Source: Isoptericola cucumis
GTDB lineage: Bacteria > Actinomycetota > Actinomycetes > Actinomycetales > Cellulomonadaceae
Length of the DNA stretch: 64,000 nucleotides
NCBI RefSeq assembly: GCF_014635665.1
Contig: NZ_BMDG01000002.1
Span: forward strand, 248,001 to 312,000
Direction: 5' to 3'
Below, in pieces: positions 5,605 through 61,447 of the stretch. Position numbers and translations under genes: made by a program. How positions within the stretch are numbered: the stretch's first letter is position 1; every line of letters begins with the position of its first letter. The notes under the pieces are model-generated. The model was not told where the DNA came from and did no database searches. It saw nothing but the letters and a program-made list of their open reading frames with translations.

Positions 5605-8061
5605 ATGCGAGCGCAGCACCCGACGGACCGTACCGGACCGGGCCTCACCCGCCGCCACCTGCTCCTGGCCGGGGCCGCGGTCCCCGTCGCGGCCGGGCTG
5701 CTCGGCTCGCCGTTCGGCGCCCCCGCCGCCCGAGCCGCTGCCCGAGCCGCCGGCAGCGTCGACGACCTGCGTGCCCGCTGGGCGGACTACCTCACCGGGG
5801 GCGCCGACCTGGACGTCGCGCACCCGCAGATCGCGGCGCAGCTCGCGGACCTGTCGACCGAGGCCGCGGACGCCCTGGCGAGCGCGGTGGCCACCCCCGC
5901 CGCCGGCGGCGACCTGTGGCCCGACCTGCCGATGGCCGGGCCGAAGGAGGGCAACATCTCCCTCACGTACTCCCGGATCCTGGTGGTCGCGACGGCCTGG
6001 GCCACGCGCGGCACCGACCAGCACGGCGACGCGGCCGTCGCCGAACGGCTCGCCGCCTGGTACCGCCACATGAGCGCGCACTGGTACAACCTGACCATCC
6101 GGAAGTCGGGCAACTGGTGGTTCTGGGAGATCGGCATCCCGCGCACCCTCGGCGACCTGTCCGTCCTCGTCGACGCGCTGCTCACCGACGCCGACCGCGC
6201 GGCCGCCGTCGCCGCCGTCCGGCGGTTCACCCCGAACCCGAACTACCGCGGCACCGGGACCTCGCCGGAGACCGGCGGCAACCGCGCCGACAAGGCGCTC
6301 GCCTGCCTGCTGCGCGGCATCACCGCCCGCGACGACGCGGACATGGTGCTGGCCCGCGACGCGCTCAGCGACGTCGCCGGCGGCGGTCGCCACAGCCTCT
6401 TCCGCTACGTCACGTCCGGGAACGGCTTCTACGCGGACGGCTCGTACATCGACCACTCGTACCTGCCGTACGTGGGCACCTACGGGAACGTGGCGCTCGC
6501 GGGCGTCGCGCGGTCGCTCATGCTGGTCGCGGGCAGCCCGTGGGACGTCACCGACCCGGACGTCGACGTCGTCCTCGACGCGCCCGAGCGGTCGTTCGCG
6601 CCGTTCGTCTGGAACGGCCGGATGCTGGAGACCGTCCGCGGCCGTGCCGTCTCGCGCGAGCACGAGCACGACTTCCACGACGGCTTCACGACGGCGGGCT
6701 CGCTGCTGCTGCTCGCCACCCAGATGCCCGCGCCCTACCGCGACACGTACCGCGCGCTGGCGAAGGGCTGGCTGTCGCGGTGCACCGAGGACTACACCGC
6801 GTCCGCCACGATCAGCGACCTCTCCCGTGCGCTGCCGCTGCTGGCCGACGACGGCGTCGCCGGAGCGCCGGAGCCGGTCGGCCACCGGCAGTTCGGCGCG
6901 CAGGAGCGGATGGTGCACCGCGGCGACGGCTGGGCGTACACCGTCGCGACGTCGTCGCGGCGGATCGGCCGCTACGAGTGGGGCAACGACGAGAACAACC
7001 TGGGCTGGCACCAGGGCGACGGCGCCGCGTACCTGTACGTCGACGGCGACCAGGGCCAGTTCGCGGACGACTACTGGCCCACCGTCGACCCCTACCGCCT
7101 GCCCGGTACGACGGCGTCGCTCACCACCCGCGAGTCCGGCGCCTCCGGCGCGGGCACCGGCATCCCGCGGGCCCAGAACGCGTGGGGCGGCGGCGTCGGC
7201 CTCGCGGGGCGGTGGGGCACCGCGGGCATGGACCTGACCAACAGCCTCGGCACCCTGACGGCGAGGAAGTCGTGGTTCCTGCTCGACGACGCGGTGGTGG
7301 CGCTGGGCTCGGGCGTGGACGTCACCGGCGACGACGCCGAGACCGTGGTGGAGAACCGCGCGTTCGCGCAACACGCCGACCCGGTGCTCGCGCTCGACGG
7401 CGCGCGCGTGACGACGCCCGTCGAGGGTGCGACGCCGTCGTGGGCGCACCTCGAGGGCGTGGCCGGGTACGTGCTGCTGGGCGGTGGCCAGGCGGTCCGC
7501 GCGGCCGTGGCCGACCGGTCCGGGTCCTGGTACGACGTGAACTCCGGCGCCGACACGGGCGGGTCCACCGACGTGCGCACCCGCCGGTACGCGACGGTGA
7601 GCGTCCAGCACCCGGCCGGGACCGCCGGCGGCCGGTACGGGTACGTGATCCTCCCCGGCGCGAGCGCCGAGCGGACCGCGGAGGCGGCGGCCGACCACGC
7701 CGAGGAGCTCGGCGTCGAGGTGCTGCGCCAGGACGCCACGGCGCACGTCGTGCGGGCCGTGCGGCAGGGCCGGTGGTTCCTGTTCGCGCACCTGTTCGCC
7801 GCGACCGACGAGGGGCCGGTGCGCGCGACCGGGCCCTGCGCGGTGCTCGTGTCGGGCACGGCGCGCACCGCCGACCTGGCCGTCTCGTCGCCGTCGAGGT
7901 CGCTCGAGCGCGCGACGGTCGAGATCGACCTCGACCGGCCGCTGCGCCGGGTGACGGCCGCCCACGAACGGCTGACCGTCACGGGCGGGAACGTCGTGCG
8001 GGTCGAGGCCGTGCTCTCGAACGCCGCCGGCGCGTCGTTCGAGGCCTCCCTGGCCGGCTGA
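5605..8061 (+). CDS. Secreted polysaccharide lyase family 8 (hyaluronate/chondroitin/xanthan lyase type)
   Basis: An 818-aa exported enzyme that should cleave a uronic-acid-containing polysaccharide by beta-elimination. A twin-arginine signal (T-R-R-H-L-L-L-A-G, then an Ala-rich stretch ending A-A-R-A) covers residues about 14-45. The alpha/alpha toroid domain holds N-W-W-x-W-E-I-G-x-P, Asn226 in T-G-G-N-R, and His284 and Tyr293 in D-G-S-Y-I-D-H-S-x8-Y-G-N, matching the family 8 Asn-His-Tyr catalytic triad. The beta-sandwich half follows. I chose ATG 5605 over GTG 5569 for the GAGAGGGA ribosome site and the intact Tat signal. The true substrate is unknown. It converges on phoU with a 6-nt gap and looks like an accessory gene inside a conserved block. 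Confidence 0.93.
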   Translation: MRAQHPTDRTGPGLTRRHLLLAGAAVPVAAGLLGSPFGAPAARAAARAAGSVDDLRARWADYLTGGADLDVAHPQIAAQLADLSTEAADALASAVATPAAGGDLWPDLPMAGPKEGNISLTYSRILVVATAWATRGTDQHGDAAVAERLAAWYRHMSAHWYNLTIRKSGNWWFWEIGIPRTLGDLSVLVDALLTDADRAAAVAAVRRFTPNPNYRGTGTSPETGGNRADKALACLLRGITARDDADMVLARDALSDVAGGGRHSLFRYVTSGNGFYADGSYIDHSYLPYVGTYGNVALAGVARSLMLVAGSPWDVTDPDVDVVLDAPERSFAPFVWNGRMLETVRGRAVSREHEHDFHDGFTTAGSLLLLATQMPAPYRDTYRALAKGWLSRCTEDYTASATISDLSRALPLLADDGVAGAPEPVGHRQFGAQERMVHRGDGWAYTVATSSRRIGRYEWGNDENNLGWHQGDGAAYLYVDGDQGQFADDYWPTVDPYRLPGTTASLTTRESGASGAGTGIPRAQNAWGGGVGLAGRWGTAGMDLTNSLGTLTARKSWFLLDDAVVALGSGVDVTGDDAETVVENRAFAQHADPVLALDGARVTTPVEGATPSWAHLEGVAGYVLLGGGQAVRAAVADRSGSWYDVNSGADTGGSTDVRTRRYATVSVQHPAGTAGGRYGYVILPGASAERTAEAAADHAEELGVEVLRQDATAHVVRAVRQGRWFLFAHLFAATDEGPVRATGPCAVLVSGTARTADLAVSSPSRSLERATVEIDLDRPLRRVTAAHERLTVTGGNVVRVEAVLSNAAGASFEASLAG

Positions 8062-50219: not shown

Positions 50220-50282
50220 GGTAGTGCCCTCCGCGCTCCGGTAGGGCCCGCCGGGCACGACCGGAGCGCGGGCGGCACTACC
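50220..50282 (-). terminator. Long hairpin at the end of the XPB gene
   Basis: GGTAGTGCC/GGCACTACC and CCGCGCTCCGG/CCGGAGCGCGG form two stacked stems (9 and 11 bp) separated by a 2-nt mismatch on each side, with a 19-nt loop. The right arm overlaps the XPB stop codon, so the gene ends inside its own terminator. Confidence 0.75.
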
Positions 50283-51966
50283 TCGCGGTGTCGGTGGCTC
50301 CCAGGTCCTCCGCGTCGACGATGCGGTAGGCGTACCCCTGCTCGGCGAGGAACCGCTGGCGGTGCGCGGCGAAGTCCTGGTCGACGGTGTCGCGCGCGAC
50401 GACGGCGTAGAAGTGCGCCGTCCGCCCGTCGGCCTTGGGCCGCATGACACGCCCGAGGCGCTGTGCCTCCTCCTGCCGCGACCCGAACGACCCGGACACC
50501 TGCACCGCGACCGACGCCTCCGGCAGGTCGATGGAAAAGTTCGCGACCTTCGACACCACGAGCCGGGAGATCTCGCCCTCGCGGAACGCGGCGAACAGCT
50601 TCTGGCGCTCGCGGACCGTCGTCGCCCCGGTGATGAGCGGCGCGTCCAGGTGCTCGCTCAGCTCCTGCAGCTGGTCGAGGTACTGGCCGATGACGAGCAC
50701 CTGGTCGTCCGGGTGGGAGGCGACGATCTGCTCGACGACGCGGTTCTTGCCCGGCGCGCACGCGGCGAGGCGGTACTTGTCCTCCGGCTCCGCCGTCGCG
50801 TACAGCATCCGCTCGTGCTCGGGCAGCGTGAGGCGCACCTCGACGCAGTCGGCGGGAGCGATGTAGCCCTGCGCCTCGATGTCCTTCCACGGGGCGTCGT
50901 ACCGCTTGGGCCCGATGAGGCTGAACACCTCGTCCTCGCGCCCGTCCTCGCGCACGAGCGTGGCGGTGAGGCCGAGGCGGCGGCGCGCCTGCAGGTCCGC
51001 CGTCATGCGGAAGATGGGCGCCGGCAGCAGGTGCACCTCGTCGTAGAGGATGAGACCCCAGTCGCGGGCGTCGAGCAGCTCGAGGTGGCTGTACACGCCC
51101 TTCCGCTTGGTCGTGAGCACCTGGTACGTGGCGATCGTGACCGGCTTGATCTCCTTGCGGGAGCCCGAGTACTCGCCGATCTCGTCCTCGGTGAGAGTGG
51201 TGCGGCGCACCAGCTCGTCGCGCCACTGCCGGGCGCTGACGGTGTTGGTCACGAGGATGAGCGTCGTGGTGCCGGAGCGCGCCATCGCCCCCGCGCCGAC
51301 GATCGTCTTGCCCGCCCCGCAGGGCAGCACGACGACGCCGGAGCCGCCGTGGAAGAACCCGTCCACCGCCTGCGCCTGGTAGGGGCGCATCTCCCAGGTG
51401 TGGGGCTCCTCGGTCGGGGTGCGCGGGGTGGTGGGGGAGGCCAGGTCGATCGGGTGCTTCTCGCCGTCGACGTACCCGGCCAGGTCCTCCGCGGGCCAGC
51501 CCAGCTTGACCAGCACCTGCTTGAGGTGGCCCCGCTCGGACGGGTGCACGACGACGGTCTCGTCGTCCACGCGCTCGCCCACCAGGCCGGCGGTGCGCTT
51601 CGACTTGAGCACCTCCGCGAGCACGGCGCGGTCGGTGGCCTGCAGCACCAGACCGTGCGTGGGGTGCGTGGCGAGCGTGAGGCGCCCGTACCGACCCATC
51701 GTCTCCGCGAGGTCGACCAGCAGCGCGTGCGGCACGGGGTAGCGCGAGTACTCGAGCAGCGTGTCCACCACCTGCTCGGCGTCGTGGCCGGCGGCACGCG
51801 CGTTCCACAGCCCGAGGCTGGTGAGCCGGTAGGTGTGGATGTGCTCGGGTGCCCGCTCCAGCTCGGCGAACGGGGCGATGGCGCGGCGGGCGTCGTCGGC
51901 GCGCGGGTGGTCCACCTCGAGCAGGATGGACTTGTCGCTCTGGACGATGAGCGGGCCGTCGGGCAT
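50278..51966 (-). CDS. XPB/Ssl2-type DNA repair helicase
   Basis: A 562-aa superfamily 2 helicase. An N-terminal damage-recognition-like domain covers about 1-180, then the RecA-like domains: motif I P-C-G-A-G-K-T near 210-216, motif II D-E-V-H (the XPB form of DExH), motif III T-A-T, and motif VI Q-R-L-G-R-V-M-R-P near 485-493. Actinobacterial XPB unwinds DNA 3' to 5', probably in nucleotide excision or transcription-coupled repair. ATG 51966 follows GAGAGGAA. The helicase-associated protein gene lies 134 nt upstream on the same strand and is its usual partner. Confidence 0.94.
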   Translation of the reverse strand: MPDGPLIVQSDKSILLEVDHPRADDARRAIAPFAELERAPEHIHTYRLTSLGLWNARAAGHDAEQVVDTLLEYSRYPVPHALLVDLAETMGRYGRLTLATHPTHGLVLQATDRAVLAEVLKSKRTAGLVGERVDDETVVVHPSERGHLKQVLVKLGWPAEDLAGYVDGEKHPIDLASPTTPRTPTEEPHTWEMRPYQAQAVDGFFHGGSGVVVLPCGAGKTIVGAGAMARSGTTTLILVTNTVSARQWRDELVRRTTLTEDEIGEYSGSRKEIKPVTIATYQVLTTKRKGVYSHLELLDARDWGLILYDEVHLLPAPIFRMTADLQARRRLGLTATLVREDGREDEVFSLIGPKRYDAPWKDIEAQGYIAPADCVEVRLTLPEHERMLYATAEPEDKYRLAACAPGKNRVVEQIVASHPDDQVLVIGQYLDQLQELSEHLDAPLITGATTVRERQKLFAAFREGEISRLVVSKVANFSIDLPEASVAVQVSGSFGSRQEEAQRLGRVMRPKADGRTAHFYAVVARDTVDQDFAAHRQRFLAEQGYAYRIVDAEDLGATDTAR

Positions 51967-52100
51967 GCGGTTCCTCTCGGTGCGCCGGACGTGGGGACGG
52001 ACGCCGGGGTGCGGACGTCCAGCATGCCAACACCACGTGCCGGCCGCGTGTTCCGGGGTGGCTGGCCGTCCGTGGCGCAAGCAGAGGGAGCCTCGGCCGG

Positions 52101-54638
52101 TCAGCCGTCGGCGGGCTCGACCCCGGCGATGCGGTGCACGGCCACCGTGAGCTCGGCCTCGCGGACGGGGTCGAGGGCGCGCAGCCGGCCGCCGTCGAGC
52201 CGCAGGGGCTTGAGCTCCCGGCGCTCCAGGGCGCCGCGGGGGCCGACCATCTCGATCCACACGCTGCGACCGTCGCGCAGGGCGTCGTGCAGCACGGCCA
52301 TCGTGTCGCCGGGCAGCGGCCCGCCGTGGCGCGGTCGCGAGGTGCCGGCGCGCGGGGCGGACCGTCCGGGCCCGGCGTCGGCCTCCGGGCCAAGGGCGTG
52401 GGAGGGCCGTGCGGCGGCACGGGCGGCGAGCCGGTCGACCGCGGTCTCCTCGCCGCGGTCGGTGGCCCGCAGCCGGGCGACGAGCGCGGCGCGGGCCTCG
52501 TCCGAGGTGTCCCCGGACTCGACGCGTGCGGTGTCGACGCGCGCGACGGGGCCCCGGCGGCGCGGGTCGGCGTCCCGCTCCAGGCGGGGCGGGCGCCGCC
52601 ACCGCGCGCTGAGCACGCGGCCGTCCGGCCCCTCCAGCGCGGACAGCAGCCCGCGGGTGCGCAGGGCCTCGTGCAGCTCGCCGGCGGGCACGGAGGAGGC
52701 GAGGACCGTCGGGGCGAGGCGCACCAGGCCGAGGTGGGCGAGCCGCGGGTCCTCGGCCAGGCCGGCGAGCGTCGTCGGGTCCGCCGACCGCACGTACGAT
52801 CCGGCCGCACCCACGCGCACCGCCTCGTGCCGCCGCGCCGTGTCCCGCACCAGGTAGGCGAGCGGCTGCGGCACGGGGACCCGCGAGCGGTGCGCGAGGT
52901 CCGCGAGCAGCTCGTCCGCCGTGGTGCCGTGGTCCAGCGCACGCGTGACGGACGCCGTCGAGAACCGGACCGTCGTCGCCGCGCCGCGGGACTCGGTCTC
53001 CGCCGAGCGCTCGAGCAGCCGCGCCAGCGACTGCGACGGGCGCCCCGGCACGATGCCGGTGAGGTCGCCCTGCAGCAACACCTCGTCCACCTCGTCGGGC
53101 AGCGCTGCGCGCATCGCCCCCGCGAGGCCGCCGGCCGCCGGGAGGGGCGCGGCGCCGGGGGCGGCGTCCGGGTCCGGCTGCGCGAGCAGCGCCCGCCCCG
53201 GCCCGGACAGCGCGCCCGCGCCCGTGACGCCCAGCAGCGCGGCCTCGGCGAGCAGCCCGCCGACCGCCTGCTCCGGCGGCACGGTGCGCGGGGTGCGCCA
53301 GCGCAGCACGGCCATGACCGCGTCGAGGTCCAGCGCCGTGCCGGGCTGCGCGGCCAGCACGCCGAGCACGTGGCGGCGCAGCCGCGGCACCCACGCGCGG
53401 TGCAGGTCGGGGGCCAGGGCCGCGCGCACGGTGCCCTTCTCGTCGCGCGACCCGACGAGCCACGGCGTGCGGCGCGACGGCAGCCACGCCGCCGCGAGCA
53501 GCGCCCAGCGGTCGGCGTCGTCCAGGTCGTCCCACGTGTCGGCGACGGTCGTGGGCCGGTACGACGGCGGGGCGTCGCCGTCGTCGGCCACCACCCCGGC
53601 CGTCGCGGCGAGCTCCACGACGAACGCCGCGACCGGCTCGTCGCAGCCCAGCGCCTGCGCGGTGCGGCGCAGCTCGCGCACCCCGAGCCCGCCGCTGCGC
53701 AGCACGGACGGCGGCGTCTCCTCCCAGGCCGCGACGAGCAGATCGACGTACCGCACGAGGTCGAGGGCGGCGCTCGCGGACTCGGTGTCGGCGGTCTCGG
53801 CGCCGATCGCCCGCCCCGCGGGGCGCGGGGGCGCGAGCTCGGGGGAGCGGTGCGTGCGGCCGCCGCGCAGGGCCAGCCCGAGGTCGCGCGGCAGCACGAC
53901 GTGCCGGGCGTCCGTGCGCTGCAGCAGCCCGGTGCCCACCAGCGCGTCGACGGCGGCGCGGGCCGGGGTGCCGGGGGCCGGGACGACGCCGACCGGCGGG
54001 CCCCACGCCAGCGCCTCGAGGACCTCGCGGCCGCCGCGGGGCAGGTCGTCGAGGCGCGGGCCCGCCGCGCGAGCGTCGGGCACGCCCGACGGGTCGGGAC
54101 GCGCGCCGGGGTCACGACGAGGGCCGAGACCCGCGGGGTAGGGGCCGAGCGCGTCGTCGAGGCCGGGGCACACGCGCAGGTCGGGGCGGGCGGGGGTGCC
54201 GGCGTCCCACAGGAGGCCGGCGGCGAGCGCGTCGTCGACCACCTGCGCGACCGCGGCGCGGGCGTCGGGTCGGTCGGAGCCCTCAGGGCCGCCGGGCGGG
54301 TCGACGTCGTCGGCCCCGACCGCCCGTGCGACCTCCGGCGCGCCGACCGGCCCGGCGTCGGCGAGCGCGAGCACCGCCTCCAGGACCTGCAGCGTCCGGG
54401 CGTCGGCGTGCGCGAGCGCGCGCTCGAGGCTGGTGCGGCTCGACGCGCGGGCGGCGAGGGAGCGCAGCGTGGAGGGCGACGGCGTCGCCAGGTCGGGGCG
54501 GGCCCGCAGCAGCGCGACGAGGCCGGCGTCGTCACGGGATCGCAGCGACTCGGTGAACGTGAGGGGGCCCGCCGGGGCACCGGCGCCGTCGGGGACGTCG
54601 GCCACCGCCGTGGGGCTCCCGGGCGACGTGCTGGCCAT
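52101..54638 (-). CDS. Helicase-associated domain protein (XPB partner)
   Basis: An 845-aa protein seen beside XPB in actinobacteria and annotated there as a helicase C-terminal/associated domain protein. It is mostly helical, with leucine-rich segments (L-V-A-L-L-R-A-R-P-D-L, residues 40-50) resembling winged-helix repeats. Near residues 510-525, L-L-Q-G-D-L-T-G-I-V-P-G-R-P-S is the most conserved family stretch. The C-terminus is a small WYL-like beta domain (R-E-L-K-P-L-R-L-D-G-G-R-L-R-A-L-D). It lacks Walker motifs, so it is probably a regulator or DNA adaptor for the helicase. The start is ATG 54638 (TAGCAT lies 7 nt upstream on the minus strand). Confidence 0.85.
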   Translation of the reverse strand: MASTSPGSPTAVADVPDGAGAPAGPLTFTESLRSRDDAGLVALLRARPDLATPSPSTLRSLAARASSRTSLERALAHADARTLQVLEAVLALADAGPVGAPEVARAVGADDVDPPGGPEGSDRPDARAAVAQVVDDALAAGLLWDAGTPARPDLRVCPGLDDALGPYPAGLGPRRDPGARPDPSGVPDARAAGPRLDDLPRGGREVLEALAWGPPVGVVPAPGTPARAAVDALVGTGLLQRTDARHVVLPRDLGLALRGGRTHRSPELAPPRPAGRAIGAETADTESASAALDLVRYVDLLVAAWEETPPSVLRSGGLGVRELRRTAQALGCDEPVAAFVVELAATAGVVADDGDAPPSYRPTTVADTWDDLDDADRWALLAAAWLPSRRTPWLVGSRDEKGTVRAALAPDLHRAWVPRLRRHVLGVLAAQPGTALDLDAVMAVLRWRTPRTVPPEQAVGGLLAEAALLGVTGAGALSGPGRALLAQPDPDAAPGAAPLPAAGGLAGAMRAALPDEVDEVLLQGDLTGIVPGRPSQSLARLLERSAETESRGAATTVRFSTASVTRALDHGTTADELLADLAHRSRVPVPQPLAYLVRDTARRHEAVRVGAAGSYVRSADPTTLAGLAEDPRLAHLGLVRLAPTVLASSVPAGELHEALRTRGLLSALEGPDGRVLSARWRRPPRLERDADPRRRGPVARVDTARVESGDTSDEARAALVARLRATDRGEETAVDRLAARAAARPSHALGPEADAGPGRSAPRAGTSRPRHGGPLPGDTMAVLHDALRDGRSVWIEMVGPRGALERRELKPLRLDGGRLRALDPVREAELTVAVHRIAGVEPADG

Positions 54639-56641: not shown

Positions 56642-57022
56642 GTGCCCACCGGCAAGGTCAAGTGGTACGACGCGGAGCGCGGGTTCGGCTTCATCGCGGG
56701 CGACGACGTCGGCGAGGTCTTCCTGCACGCCTCGGCGCTGCCCCCGGACGCGAACCCGAAGCCCGGCACGCGCGTGGAGTTCGGTGTCGCCGACGGCCGC
56801 CGCGGACCCTCCGCCCTCTCGGTGACGGTCCTCGACCCGGCACCGTCGGTGGCCAAGGCGAAGCGCAAGGCCCCGTCGGAGATGGCGGGCATCGTCGAGG
56901 ACCTCATCACGGTGCTCGACCGTGTCGGCGACCAGCTGAAGCGCGGCAAGTACCCTGAGGCCGCGACCGGCAAGCGCGTGGCGACGCTGCTGCGCGCCGT
57001 CGCCGACGACCTCGACAGCTGA
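56642..57022 (+). CDS. Cold-shock domain protein with helical extension
   Basis: A 126-aa protein. Residues 1-65 are a cold-shock domain (G-K-V-K-W-Y-D, RNP1 R-G-F-G-F-I, RNP2 V-F-L-H-A). About 60 extra residues follow, basic at first (K-A-K-R-K-A) and then helical (I-V-E-D-L-I-T-V-L-D-R-V-G-D-Q-L-K-R-G-K-Y). This longer CspB-like type is found in actinobacteria next to DUF3027, as here (34 nt). The start is GTG 56642. Confidence 0.92.
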   Translation: MPTGKVKWYDAERGFGFIAGDDVGEVFLHASALPPDANPKPGTRVEFGVADGRRGPSALSVTVLDPAPSVAKAKRKAPSEMAGIVEDLITVLDRVGDQLKRGKYPEAATGKRVATLLRAVADDLDS

Positions 57023-57056
57023 CGAGAACCCGAGACAGAGACCCGCGAGAGGGAAC

Positions 57057-57866
57057 ATGGTGACTGCTGCCGCTCCGGCGCCCGCGCGCACACCGCGGGT
57101 CAGCGCCCGCGCACGGAACGACGCCGTGCTGCTGGCCGCTGCCGACCAGGCGCGCGAGGCCGCGCAGGAGGTGGCCTCGTCGCCGTCCGACGTGGGGGAG
57201 CACCTCGGGACGGTGGCCGAGGGCGAGCGCCTCATGTCGCACCGCTTCGCCGCGACGATGAAGGGCTACCGCGGGTGGCACTGGACCGTGACCCTGGCCC
57301 GCGTGCCGCGCGGGCGCGTCGCGACGGTGTGCGAGGTCGAGCTGCTGCCGGGCGACGAGGCCGTCCTCGCGCCGGAGTGGCTGCCGTGGTCGGAGCGCCT
57401 GCGCCCCGGCGACATCGGCCCGGGGGACACGCTGCCGTTCCGGGCGGACGACCCGCGCCTCGAGCCCGGGTGGACGCCCACCGGCGACGAGGAGCTGGAC
57501 TCCGTCGCGATCGACGAGCTGGCCCTCGCCCGTGCGCGCGTGCTGTCGCCGCAGGGTCGTGACGAGGCGGCCGAGCGCTGGTACCGCGGCTCCCGCGGGC
57601 CCACGTCGCGCGGCGCGGTGGCGTCGAAGGCCGAGTGCGGCACCTGCGCGTTCCTCGTCCCGCTGGCCGGCCCGCTCGGTCAGCTCTTCGCGGTCTGCGC
57701 CAACGAGTGGTCGCCGGACGACGGCAAGGTCGTCTCGCTCGACCACGGCTGCGGCGCGCACTCCGAGACGGACGTCGAGCCGTCCGGCACGGACTGGCCG
57801 GCGGACGCCCCGCTCATCGACGAGGTGAGCGTCGAACGGATCGATCCCGCCGACGACAGGCGGTGA
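57057..57866 (+). CDS. DUF3027 protein with C-terminal cysteine cluster
   Basis: A 269-aa cytoplasmic protein. The central block H-R-F-A-A-x-M-x-G-Y-x-G-W-H-W-T-V-T-L-A-R near residues 62-82 and L-P-G-D-E-A-V-L-A-P-x-W-L-P-W near 97-111 define DUF3027, a family confined to actinobacteria. The C-terminus has C-G-T-C (near 197), C-A-N-E-W-S near 218 and D-H-G-C-G-A-H-S-E-T-D near 233-243, a probable metal site. The function is unknown. ATG 57057 follows GAGAGGGA. It lies between csp and the sacsin-like ATPase gene, with only 8 nt to the latter. Confidence 0.85.
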   Translation: MVTAAAPAPARTPRVSARARNDAVLLAAADQAREAAQEVASSPSDVGEHLGTVAEGERLMSHRFAATMKGYRGWHWTVTLARVPRGRVATVCEVELLPGDEAVLAPEWLPWSERLRPGDIGPGDTLPFRADDPRLEPGWTPTGDEELDSVAIDELALARARVLSPQGRDEAAERWYRGSRGPTSRGAVASKAECGTCAFLVPLAGPLGQLFAVCANEWSPDDGKVVSLDHGCGAHSETDVEPSGTDWPADAPLIDEVSVERIDPADDRR

Positions 57867-57874
57867 GGGCGACG

Positions 57875-57918
57875 GTGGTCGCACATCGACAGGCTCAGGG
57901 GCCGCCCGTCGCGACCAC
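57875..57918. repeat. REP-like inverted repeat at the start of the sacsin-like gene
   Basis: GTGGTCGC at 57875-57882 pairs with GCGACCAC at 57911-57918 and encloses ATCGACAGGCTCAGGGG. TCGACAGGC is shared with the hairpin between pstS and pstC. If the start at 57875 is right, the element encodes the first residues of the protein. Confidence 0.55.
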
Positions 57919-60900
57919 TGAGCCGGACACCGACGCACGCACGAAGGGTCCGGCCGGCGCGACGCCGGACCCCTTCGGCGCCGCCGCGCTGCGGGACGCC
58001 GTGGTTGCGGCGTGGCTCGCCTCCGGCACCCGCTTCCGGGAGGACGCGAACGCGGAGGAGGACCACGCCCGCGGCTACTACCGCGACCGGGTGGTCGTCG
58101 AGCTCGCCCAGAACGCGGCCGACGCCGCCGCGCGCGCCGACGCCCGGGGGCGCCTGCGCCTGAGCCTCGAGCGCGTCCCGGAGGGCGGCTGGCGGCTCGT
58201 GGCGGCCAACACGGGCGCCCCCCTGGACGCCGACGGCGTCGCGTCGCTGGCCTCGCTGCGCGCGTCGGCGAAGGTGTCCGGCCCGGCGGACGAGCCCGCC
58301 GCCGGGAGCGGCCCGGTCGGCCGGTTCGGGGTCGGCTTCGCCGCCACCCGGTCGGTGTCGGACGACGTCGCGGTGCGCTCGACGACCGGCGGCGTGCGCT
58401 TCTCCCTGCGCCGCACCCGGGAGCTGCTCGACGCCGTCACCGCCCCCGCCGAGGGCGCGGGCGAGGGTGCCGAGCGCCTGCGGCGCGCGGTCGCCGAGCG
58501 GGGCGACGACCTGCCGGTGCTGCGGCTGCCGTTCGAGGCGCCGGCGCTGGCCGACGCCGCCCTCGACGCCCCCTCCGACGCCCCGGAATGGGCGGTCACC
58601 GTCGTCGAGCTCGCGCTGCGCGACGACGCCGTGGACGCCGTGCGCGACCAGCTCGCCGCCGTCGACGACGCGCTCCTGCTCGCCCTGCCCGCCCTCGCGG
58701 AGATCGTCGTCGAGCTGCCGGACACGGACGGCGAGACCCGGCGCACCACGGTGCGCGACGTCGCCGAGCGGTGGGCGGTGCGCCGCCGCGCGGGGGTCGT
58801 GGACGCCGACGACGTGGCCGACCTGCCGCGCGAGCAGCGGCGCACCGCGTGGTCCGTCACCTGGGCGCTGCCGCGGGAGGAGCCCGCGCGCGCCGGCGTG
58901 CTGCACGCGCCCACGCCCACGGACGTCCCGCTGACGCTGCCGGGCCTGCTGGTCGCGTCGTTCCCGGTCGACCCGGGTCGCCGGCAGGTGCTGCCGGGCG
59001 CGGTCACGGACCGGCTGGCGGCGGAGGCGGGGACGGCGTTCGCCGAGGTGCTCACCGACCTGGCCGCCGGGGAGTCGGGCCTGCACGGTGCGGCGGTCCT
59101 CGACCTCGTGCCCGCCGACCTGCCCGCGGGCGAGCTGGACGCCGCGGTCCGGGAGGCGGCCACCGACGCGCTGCGCACGGCGCCGCTGCTGCCGGCGGGG
59201 CCCGGCCCGGACGGCTCGGGCCCGGACGGCTCGGGCGCAGGTTCGCGGGTGGCCCCCGAGGACGCCACCGTGCTCGCCGGGCCGGCGGGCGAGGACGAGG
59301 CGCTCGTCGCCGCGCTCGCGGGGGTCGTCCCGGGGCTGGTCGCGCTCGCGCCGTCCCGCCAGGGCGTCGCCCGCCGGCTGGGCGCCACGACCGTGCAGCT
59401 CGCCGACGTCGTCGCCGAGCTGCCCGCGGCCCTGCCGCCCGCCGGCTGGTGGACGCTGTGCGAGGCGCTCGAGCCGCACGTCTCGGACGCCGGGGTGCTG
59501 GAGGCGCTGGCGGGCGCGCACGTGCCGCTCGTCGACGGGCGCCGGGCGTCGGGCGTGCGCGGCACGGTCGTGCTGCCGGAGGACGACGACGACCCCGCGC
59601 TGGTGGCGATCGCGCGCACCCTCGCCGTGCGCGTGGTGCACCCCGACGCGGCGCACCCGCTGCTGGTGCGCGCCGGGGCCACGCCGACCGACGCCCGCGC
59701 GCTGCTCGACGACGACGGGGTGCGCGCGCTCGCGCTCGCCGCGTCGGAGGCGCTGCTGGACGGGGCCGCCGAGGTGCCGCCGGTGGCGGACTGGCCGGCA
59801 CCGACGACGCTCGTCGGGCCGGTCGACGCGCGACCGCGGGAGGTCGTGGAGACGGCGCTGGCGCTGGCGCGGCTGGCGCTGCCGGCGGGCGCGGAGGGCT
59901 TCCCGTTCTGGCTCGGCGAGCTGCCGCTGCCGACGGCCGACGGCGAGCTGGCTCCCGCGCGCGAGACGTCGGTGCCGGGCTCGTGGGCCGCCGACGCGAT
60001 GGACGGCCTGGCGCCGGTGACGCGGGCGGCGATGGCCCGGCACGGGGCCGAGCTGCTGCGCGCGGTCGGCGCCCGCGCCGACCTCGCGGTGTACCGCGTC
60101 CCCGACGTGCTCACCCCCGACGCCGACGACCCCGAGCCGGAGCACGGCCCGGACGACCCGGCGGGCTGGCTGGCCGGGTGGGCCGACTACCTGCGCTTCC
60201 TCGGCGAGCGGCTGGGGCCCGGGGTGGACCTGGGCGACGTGCTCGCCGTGGCCGACCTGGACGCCGTCTCCGTCCCGGAGGCGGCGGACGGCGTGCCCGA
60301 GGACGACCGGGCCGACGACGACCCGGCCGACGACGACCGGTGGGCCGAGGTCCTGGCCCACCTGGCCGCCGACCCGGACGCGCGCCGCGCGCTCGTCACG
60401 CCGGTCTCCGGCGCGCCGTCGTACACCGCGTGGTGGCTGCGCCGCGCCCTGGGCGCGCCGTTCGCGCGCCACGCCGGCGTCCCGCTGCTGCCCCTGCTGC
60501 CGGAGGCGATGGCGGGGCTGGACGACGAGGTGCAGCGGGCGCTCGGCGCCGTCGACGGGCTCGGGGCGCTCGCGGCGGGGGACTGGCCGGCCGCGCTGGA
60601 GCGCCTTCCCGGCGTCGGCGAGGCGCTCCCGCTGCCCGTCGCCCTCGGCGTCTGGCGCGGTCTGGCCGGGCTGGCGGTGCGGCTCGGCCGGGCGGCGCGC
60701 GCCGCGGCCCTGGACCCGCTGCCCGACAGGCTTCCTGCGCTCGACGCGAGCGACGTCGTCGTGCGGCGGGCCGACGACGTGGAGGTGGCGGGCACCGCGC
60801 GCTGGGCCGTGCTCGGGCCGGTGCTCCCGGTGCCGGAGGTCGAGGTCGAGGCCGTCGCCGACCTGCTGGACCTGCCGGTCGTGGGAGAGGACGGGCTGCC

Positions 60901-61186
60901 CTCACCCGACGGTCAAGGGCAGGAGCAGCCGCTCGACCCGCGCGTCGTCGCGCTCGACCCGCGCCTGCCGGAGACCTGGCACTCCCACGAGCGTCTCTCC
61001 GTCGCCGGGGCGCCTGTGCCGTGGTGGGTGGACGCCGACGGCCGGGTGCACGCCACCGACCGGGCGGGGCTCGCGGCCGCGCTGGCCGACCGGCTGGGGC
61101 GTCCGGACCGTGCCGCGCTCCTCGCGACCGTGCTCGCCGCCCCCGAGCGGGCCACCGAGCTGTGGGTCACCACCGCCTGGGGCTGA
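57875..61186 (+). CDS. Sacsin-like GHKL ATPase-domain protein
   Basis: A 1103-aa protein of the group annotated as sacsin N-terminal ATP-binding-like. The Hsp90-type ATP fold is at residues about 65-330: V-E-L-A-Q-N80-A-A-D83-A is the N-box, N-T-G near 113 and V-G-R-F-G-V-G-F near 148-155 the glycine boxes. The remaining 770 residues are Leu/Ala/Asp-rich, mostly helical, with no known catalytic motif. GTG 57875 has GAGGG 5 nt upstream; GTG 57863, which overlaps the DUF3027 stop (GTGA), is an alternative. The role is unknown; a chaperone or nucleic-acid-linked ATPase is possible. It is the downstream member of csp-DUF3027-sacsin. Confidence 0.82.
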   Translation: MVAHRQAQGPPVATTEPDTDARTKGPAGATPDPFGAAALRDAVVAAWLASGTRFREDANAEEDHARGYYRDRVVVELAQNAADAAARADARGRLRLSLERVPEGGWRLVAANTGAPLDADGVASLASLRASAKVSGPADEPAAGSGPVGRFGVGFAATRSVSDDVAVRSTTGGVRFSLRRTRELLDAVTAPAEGAGEGAERLRRAVAERGDDLPVLRLPFEAPALADAALDAPSDAPEWAVTVVELALRDDAVDAVRDQLAAVDDALLLALPALAEIVVELPDTDGETRRTTVRDVAERWAVRRRAGVVDADDVADLPREQRRTAWSVTWALPREEPARAGVLHAPTPTDVPLTLPGLLVASFPVDPGRRQVLPGAVTDRLAAEAGTAFAEVLTDLAAGESGLHGAAVLDLVPADLPAGELDAAVREAATDALRTAPLLPAGPGPDGSGPDGSGAGSRVAPEDATVLAGPAGEDEALVAALAGVVPGLVALAPSRQGVARRLGATTVQLADVVAELPAALPPAGWWTLCEALEPHVSDAGVLEALAGAHVPLVDGRRASGVRGTVVLPEDDDDPALVAIARTLAVRVVHPDAAHPLLVRAGATPTDARALLDDDGVRALALAASEALLDGAAEVPPVADWPAPTTLVGPVDARPREVVETALALARLALPAGAEGFPFWLGELPLPTADGELAPARETSVPGSWAADAMDGLAPVTRAAMARHGAELLRAVGARADLAVYRVPDVLTPDADDPEPEHGPDDPAGWLAGWADYLRFLGERLGPGVDLGDVLAVADLDAVSVPEAADGVPEDDRADDDPADDDRWAEVLAHLAADPDARRALVTPVSGAPSYTAWWLRRALGAPFARHAGVPLLPLLPEAMAGLDDEVQRALGAVDGLGALAAGDWPAALERLPGVGEALPLPVALGVWRGLAGLAVRLGRAARAAALDPLPDRLPALDASDVVVRRADDVEVAGTARWAVLGPVLPVPEVEVEAVADLLDLPVVGEDGLPSPDGQGQEQPLDPRVVALDPRLPETWHSHERLSVAGAPVPWWVDADGRVHATDRAGLAAALADRLGRPDRAALLATVLAAPERATELWVTTAWG

Positions 61187-61189
61187 GGA

Positions 61190-61447
61190 TCAGTCCTCGC
61201 CGCGGTAGGCGCGCCGGTTGCGCCGCTCCCACAGCAGCCCCAGGCCGCCGAGCAGGACGCCGACGGCGCAGGTGACGACGACCTCCGGCGTCGCGCGCCC
61301 GAGGGCGAGCAGCACCACGGTCACCACCAGGACAACGGCCCAGGCTGCGATGCCGGCGAGGAGCACCCGGCGCAGGTCCACCCGCAGCGGCGGGGGCCCG
61401 GGACGACGACGCTCCGGGTGGAGCAGCAGGCTCATGATCGACGGCAC
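61190..61447 (-). CDS. DUF2530 small membrane protein
   Basis: An 85-aa protein with two hydrophobic helices (about 28-48 and 57-74) and a basic N-terminus. P-P-L-R-V-D-L-R-R-V-L-L-A-G-I-A-A-W and the second-helix T-C-A-V-G-V-L-L-G-G-L-G-L-L-W match DUF2530, an actinobacterial family of unknown function. The start is GTG 61447 because TAGACT lies 6 nt upstream on the minus strand; ATG 61435 is also in frame. It converges with the sacsin-like gene with a 3-nt gap. Confidence 0.82.
   Translation of the reverse strand: MPSIMSLLLHPERRRPGPPPLRVDLRRVLLAGIAAWAVVLVVTVVLLALGRATPEVVVTCAVGVLLGGLGLLWERRNRRAYRGED

What the first reader, a model, noticed from the sequence alone, without database searches (positions are those of the whole stretch)
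56642..61186. csp-DUF3027-sacsin-like ATPase: a compact module of unknown function
An extended cold-shock protein, a cysteine-cluster DUF3027 protein and a 1103-aa GHKL ATPase lie in one direction with 34-nt and 8-nt gaps, closed by a convergent DUF2530 gene. An RNA chaperone, a possible metal protein and an Hsp90-like ATPase together suggest an undescribed RNA- or protein-quality system. To my knowledge the neighbourhood recurs in actinobacteria without an assigned function.
Basis: partly seen in the sequence, partly recalled or inferred. Interest (0 to 1): 0.75.

Follow-up and report, generated by a model that had tools for sequence, protein, structure and literature searches.

The report
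Linked cold-shock protein and DUF3027
A distinctive cold-shock (probably RNA-binding) protein gene and a gene of unknown function stay close together on the chromosome across the actinomycetes sampled, and about half of these bacteria also carry a large chaperone-like ATPase, usually right behind them; the joint function is unknown and can now be tested.

Summary
In detail: the three genes, their families, gaps and the quoted N80/D83 are there. The ATPase can also start at GTG 57863, overlapping the DUF3027 stop by 4 nt, as in 15 of 31 relatives. A survey shifts the emphasis. The extended Csp (its 60-aa C-terminal extension) occurs in 216 of 216 sampled genomes of the class, DUF3027 in 214; in 296 genomes of the phylum the same 26 hold both. 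Where both lie on one contig (200 genomes) they are within 10 kb, in four arrangements; two flanking controls are less constant. The sacsin/Hsp90-like ATPase is an optional third part (111 of 216), directly downstream of DUF3027 in 85 of 111. DUF2530 is a convergent neighbour. I infer an RNA-binding Csp, an adaptor (DUF3027) and, in half the class, an ATP-driven clamp. No interaction, RNA binding or ATPase activity is shown. Against an obligate complex: three genomes lost DUF3027 but kept the Csp. DUF3027 is in print as an actinobacterial signature protein (SCO4330); my searches found no description of the module.

The parts
56642..57022 (+). extended cold-shock protein (CspB type), 126 aa
   Evidence: PF00313 57 bits; match over residues 2-125 to a solved 134-aa CspB, PDB 9xw3, E 6e-33
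56834..57019 (+). C-terminal extension of the Csp (profile A6)
   Evidence: conserved in the 19 aligned proteins; found in 216 of 216 class genomes
57057..57866 (+). DUF3027 protein, 269 aa
   Evidence: PF11228 E 7e-86
57636..57761 (+). Cys/His cluster of DUF3027: C194, C197, C214, C232, H235
   Evidence: invariant in 47 of 47 aligned proteins and in the 19
57863..57866 (+). GTGA overlap: alternative in-frame start of the ATPase over the DUF3027 stop
   Evidence: sequence; -4 nt in 15 of 31 relatives
57875..61186 (+). sacsin/Hsp90-like GHKL ATPase, 1103 aa from this start
57980..58762 (+). GHKL ATP-binding domain (about residues 36-296); E76, N80, D83 and GRFGVGF 149-155
   Evidence: these residues invariant in 27 of 27 aligned proteins, except F151 in 26 of 27
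58979..58984 (+). R369-R370, candidate catalytic-loop arginines
   Evidence: invariant in 27 of 27; compare sacsin Arg 474 and Hsp90 Arg 380 (PMC9880540, passages); equivalence inferred, not superposed
61190..61447 (-). DUF2530 small protein, convergent neighbour
   Evidence: PF10745 30 bits; not claimed as part of the module

Best explanation
The extended Csp and DUF3027 are a conserved, co-selected pair of the class. The Csp binds single-stranded RNA through its cold-shock domain, and its helical tail serves as a docking site. DUF3027 is an adaptor: its N-terminal alpha/beta domain (cystatin-like in the model) works with the Csp, and its Cys/His half holds a metal-stabilised fold. In about half the class the adaptor also serves a sacsin/Hsp90-type ATPase that closes and opens on ATP to remodel the bound ribonucleoprotein or client. 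Shown: gene identities, co-distribution, closeness, frequent operon-like overlap, intact ATP-site motifs, predicted fold of the ATPase N-terminal part. Inferred: RNA binding, docking, helical tail, metal, adaptor role, ATPase activity and a role in stress or development.
For: Nested distribution in 216 class genomes: extended Csp 216, DUF3027 214, ATPase 114 raw, 111 after three weak or paralogous hits were dropped; no DUF3027 without the Csp among these 216, and only one ATPase genome, G391 (82% complete), without DUF3027. The same 26 of 296 phylum genomes hold both. Closeness within 10 kb in 200 of 200; in 80 genomes 80 of 80, against 49 of 76 for csp to Helicase_C_3 and 38 of 79 for DUF3027 to SerC. 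Flipped order with close adjacency in 17 genomes of family f94, mostly 1.2-1.5 Mb. In family f87 the block broke between DUF3027 and the ATPase: the ATPase stayed 10-24 kb from SerC in five genomes checked, DUF3027 stayed with csp. ATPase directly downstream of DUF3027 in 85 of 111. The 11 genomes whose DUF3027 match stops before the Cys half all lack the ATPase and keep the Csp within 310 nt. ATP-site and candidate Arg-loop residues invariant. In S. coelicolor SCO4330 had more than five insertions among mutants with lowered or abolished actinorhodin (PMC6585502, passage).
Against: DUF3027 is gone and the Csp kept in three genomes of genus g283 (G629, G695, G717), and their extension scores lie within the range of g283 genomes that keep DUF3027. 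About 93 genomes keep a long DUF3027 match without the ATPase (my arithmetic). In named Micromonospora loci csp and DUF3027 are 3.6-5.9 kb apart and in genus g9 3.4-8.3 kb, so they are no operon there. Much of the closeness may be inherited regional synteny: the controls lie more than 100 kb away or on another contig in only one family (Helicase_C_3, f94) and three families (SerC: f9, f86, f87); the other cases are 25-50 kb. The RNP2 histidine (motif recalled) is replaced in 5 of 19 extended Csps. The Cys half of the model has pLDDT under 50.
Confidence: 0.3

Rival explanations
1. Passive synteny: an ancient block (XPB, Helicase_C_3, extended csp, MFS, DUF3027, ATPase, DUF2530, permease, MarR, SerC and more) that has been little shuffled; the proteins work separately.
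For: The block is recognisable across families; csp and DUF3027 are often separated by other genes (MFS, Mqn-type). Counted as moves of over 100 kb or to another contig, Helicase_C_3 broke away in one family and SerC in three, so few independent breaks were available to be survived.
Against: csp-DUF3027 stays within 10 kb in 80 of 80, csp-Helicase_C_3 in 49 of 76 and DUF3027-SerC in 38 of 79 (SerC starts out farther away, so Helicase_C_3 is the fairer control). Order and strand changed while closeness stayed. In f94 and f87 the block broke on one side and the pair stayed together.
Confidence: 0.34
2. DUF3027 and the ATPase form a proteostasis pair (Hsp90-like clamp plus co-chaperone); the Csp is only a neighbour.
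For: Start-stop overlaps, 85 of 111 directly downstream, sacsin/Hsp90 fold; groEL lies upstream near the pair on the same strand in some small genomes.
Against: About half of the class genomes have DUF3027 without the ATPase; where the Cys half and the ATPase are missing, the Csp stays beside the DUF3027 remnant; in f87 the ATPase left DUF3027 and the Csp did not.
Confidence: 0.2
3. The ATPase belongs to an anti-phage or conflict system.
For: PADLOC TmtA profiles match residues 46-442 at E 4.5e-32; HEPN domains, one of them in animal sacsin, are discussed in conflict and stress systems (PMC3710099, passages).
Against: Fixed place beside DUF3027 in 85 of 111; the ATPase has no PHROGs match. Longer sacsin-like frames elsewhere in some genomes may be the defence members; this was not tested.
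Confidence: 0.08
4. Csp and DUF3027 act on transcription or mRNA of their block (MFS, MarR, permease) as local regulators.
For: Closeness to these genes in many families.
Against: In the five f94 loci read (about 11 kb each) the pair is kept and no XanUra or MarR gene is found.
Confidence: 0.08

Closest known systems
Sacsin (SR1/SIRPT Hsp90-like repeats)
   Different: One ATPase unit in 1103 aa; no ubiquitin-like, DnaJ or HEPN domain matched in Pfam
HtpG/Hsp90/TRAP1
   Different: HSP90 family model 16.1 bits against a cut-off of 455
CspB of Streptomyces (SCO4325) and PDB 9xw3
   Same: Match along nearly the whole protein, extension included, to 9xw3; SCO4325 is called CspB in PMC9739823 (passage) and its number lies five before SCO4330; that it is the same gene is inferred
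   Different: The passages seen say nothing of DUF3027 or a partner
DUF3027 actinobacterial signature protein (SCO4330, ML2142; Rv0877)
   Same: Same Pfam family; listed among actinobacterial signature genes (PMC4255298, passage); Rv0877 named DUF3027 in PMC7781554 (passage)
   Different: Function and link to the extended Csp and the ATPase are not in the passages seen

Membership tests
PF00313 cold-shock domain | domain score over cut-off | tested here: met
   57 against 27 bits
Canonical CspA/CspE/CspD | NCBIfam equivalog or subfamily cut-offs | tested here: not met
   best 49.4 against 120
PF11228 DUF3027 | score over cut-off, full length | tested here: met
   287.5 bits, profile 1-192 of 193
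Sacsin-type ATP-binding domain (NF047352) | score over cut-off | tested here: met
   63.1 against 50
GHKL ATPase | E/N/D of the N box and glycine-rich lid motif | tested here: met
   E76, N80, D83, G149, G152, G154 invariant in 27; Pfam HATPase_c below cut-off; motif names recalled
GHKL ATPase | Asp of the DxGxG motif | tested here: inconclusive
   the family reads N112-x-G114 there, invariant in 27
Hsp90 (HtpG) | HSP90 family model | tested here: not met
   16.1 against 455 bits
Sacsin protein | three SIRPT repeats, UbL, DnaJ, HEPN | tested here: not met
   1103 aa with one ATPase region; Pfam at E 0.1 lists none of these domains
PADLOC TmtA | full-length profile and partner genes | tested here: inconclusive
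   profile 23-402 of 1538 only; partner genes not examined
Active ATPase | ATP turnover | not testable with these tools
   needs an assay
Zinc or metal protein (DUF3027) | bound metal | not testable with these tools
   C194, C197, C214, C232, H235 invariant in 47; model there below pLDDT 50

The most novel reading that the evidence does not exclude
The class shares a core ribonucleoprotein, extended CspB plus DUF3027, inherited by nearly all members including 1.2 Mb genomes, on which an ancestral sacsin/Hsp90-like ATPase acted as a dedicated ATP-driven remodeller: a chaperone-coupled cold-shock system with no counterpart known to me elsewhere.
Probability: 0.17. Interest if true: 0.85.

Novelty: new variant of a known kind. 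Interest (0 to 1): 0.57.

Why it matters
A nearly universal, mostly single-copy gene pair of a large bacterial class, Streptomyces and mycobacteria included, has no assigned joint function. Closeness and nested distribution give a concrete candidate partner for DUF3027 and a genomic context for a bacterial sacsin-like ATPase, a fold of medical interest whose ATPase mechanism is debated in print (PMC9880540, passages).

Full report
Observation. The Csp carries about 60 residues beyond the cold-shock domain. DUF3027 carries C194, C197, C214, C232 and H235. The ATPase has E76, N80 and D83. A GTG at 57863, in frame with the ATPase, overlaps the DUF3027 stop by 4 nt; relatives have the same overlap in 15 of 31 called cases.

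Named relatives. The one scan of named genomes with the DUF3027 alignment A1 kept the best 80 loci of 554 confirmed; the nearest are two Isoptericola (80-84% identity), and records very near the window may be left out. In these 80 a Csp of this type was found in 76: within 500 nt upstream on the same strand in 51, 0.5-2.5 kb in 11, 2.5-6.5 kb in 13, one otherwise placed; the 4 without it have 0.75-3.8 kb of upstream sequence. The ATPase was found in 34, downstream on the same strand in 33; of the 46 without a match, 42 have more than 3 kb downstream. A DUF2530-like ORF was found in 43. A best-80 list leans to near relatives.

Class and phylum. In 296 genomes of the phylum DUF3027 is in 26 and the Csp extension in the same 26. 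In 216 genomes of the class the extension is in 216 (one match each except G328 with two) and DUF3027 in 214 (two matches in G323, G364 and G468); the two misses, G315 and G391, are 80-82% complete. The ATPase profile matches 114 of 216; three weak or paralogous cases were dropped, leaving 111.

Linkage. Distances are between profile matches, not gene ends. Csp extension and DUF3027 lie on one contig in 200 genomes and are within 10 kb in all 200 (largest 9.4 kb); 14 more have them on different contigs and 2 lack DUF3027. Arrangements: csp first on the same strand 166, DUF3027 first 18 (17 of them family f94), divergent 10, convergent 6. As a control I placed two block neighbours in 80 of the 216 genomes, chosen by hand for few contigs: csp-DUF3027 within 10 kb 80 of 80; csp-Helicase_C_3 49 of 76 within 10 kb and 59 of 76 within 25 kb; DUF3027-Helicase_C_3 37 and 61 of 76; DUF3027-SerC 38 and 58 of 79. 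The Helicase_C_3 listing was cut and I entered mainly the best copy per genome. The control is weaker than these counts suggest: of 17 genomes with Helicase_C_3 beyond 25 kb, 11 are family f94 (over 250 kb or another contig) and 6 are 25-50 kb; of 21 with SerC beyond 25 kb, 16 in families f9, f86 and f87 are over 100 kb or on another contig and 5 are 27-39 kb. Some other-contig cases are drafts. So clear breaks are few: one family on one side, three on the other, none between csp and DUF3027. Five genomes have both neighbours beyond 25 kb or on another contig and keep the pair. On checking this I lowered the best explanation from 0.33 to 0.30, raised passive synteny from 0.30 to 0.34, and trimmed the novel case, the local-regulator rival and the interest by 0.01 each.

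Small genomes. In family f94 (17 genomes, mostly 1.2-1.5 Mb, up to 2.2 Mb) DUF3027 comes before csp on one strand; in the five loci read a convergent DUF2530-like ORF follows, and the MFS gene in four. In L147 DUF3027 ends at 5817 and csp starts at 5975. A groEL gene (named by eye) lies upstream on the same strand in all five f94 loci, 72 nt from DUF3027 in L147, and near the pair in one f100 and one f103 locus; in two Bifidobacteriaceae MAGs it is about 6 kb from csp. That is 9 of 109 loci scanned, plus a fragment in L064; most loci do not reach far enough. In the window groEL is 18 kb upstream on the same strand, so this may be collapse of the block.

DUF3027 halves. In ten genomes of family f5 and in G008 (f2) the match covers only the first 70-104 positions. 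I read four of these 11 proteins: none has the Cys cluster, and three end in acidic tails. None of the 11 genomes has an ATPase match; all 11 keep the Csp extension within 310 nt. About 93 genomes keep a long DUF3027 match without the ATPase, so the coupling is one-way at best, and the 11 are few lineages.

Counter-evidence. In 251 genomes of family f7 DUF3027 is in 246. Of the five misses, G535 is a contig end, G514 has neither gene, and G629, G695 and G717 keep the Csp while no DUF3027 is found in 17-18 kb around it. The tool's 14 control genomes, which include Corynebacterium glutamicum (named), show no DUF3027.

Literature, passages only. DUF3027 is listed among actinobacterial signature genes, SCO4330/ML2142 (PMC4255298). 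SCO4330 had more than five insertions among mutants with lowered or abolished actinorhodin (PMC6585502). Rv0877 is called DUF3027 and is frameshifted in one BCG isolate (PMC7781554). SCO4325 is called CspB and is highly expressed under phosphate limitation in S. lividans (PMC9739823). None of these passages describes the module. The library holds open-licence papers only.

Verdict. A real, conserved arrangement of known families with an unexpectedly strict Csp-DUF3027 closeness and an optional sacsin/Hsp90-like ATPase. The adaptor-and-clamp mechanism is my best guess at about three chances in ten, with passive synteny as a serious rival.

Noticed in passing
L147-L151 (family f94), L154 (f103), L157 (f100); also L052, L069: groEL (named by eye) lies upstream of the csp/DUF3027 pair on the same strand in small genomes, 72 nt from DUF3027 in L147.
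   Followed up: partly
G629, G695, G717, G514 (genus g283): No DUF3027 around the retained Csp in three genomes; a fourth has no match to either profile.
   Followed up: partly
G182:C19, G278:C3, G368:C33, G431:C1, G478:C53, G485:C8, G381:C1: Other sacsin-like ATPase matches in long open frames (about 1,565-1,780 aa stop to stop), possibly PADLOC TmtA-like.
   Followed up: no
Family f87 genomes (e.g. G327, G369, G378, G386, G402): The ATPase lies away from DUF3027 but 10-24 kb from SerC; its open frame is often longer, about 1,240-1,380 aa stop to stop.
   Followed up: partly
window 50278-54605 and relatives: An XPB helicase and a Helicase_C_3 protein recur near the pair in many families: a wider conserved block of unknown reason.
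   Followed up: partly
L023-L026 (families f2, f5): DUF3027 reduced to its N-terminal half; three of the four end in long acidic tails.
   Followed up: partly
window 56642-57022: A solved structure of a relative with the extension exists (PDB 9xw3, CspB); its coordinates were not examined.
   Followed up: no
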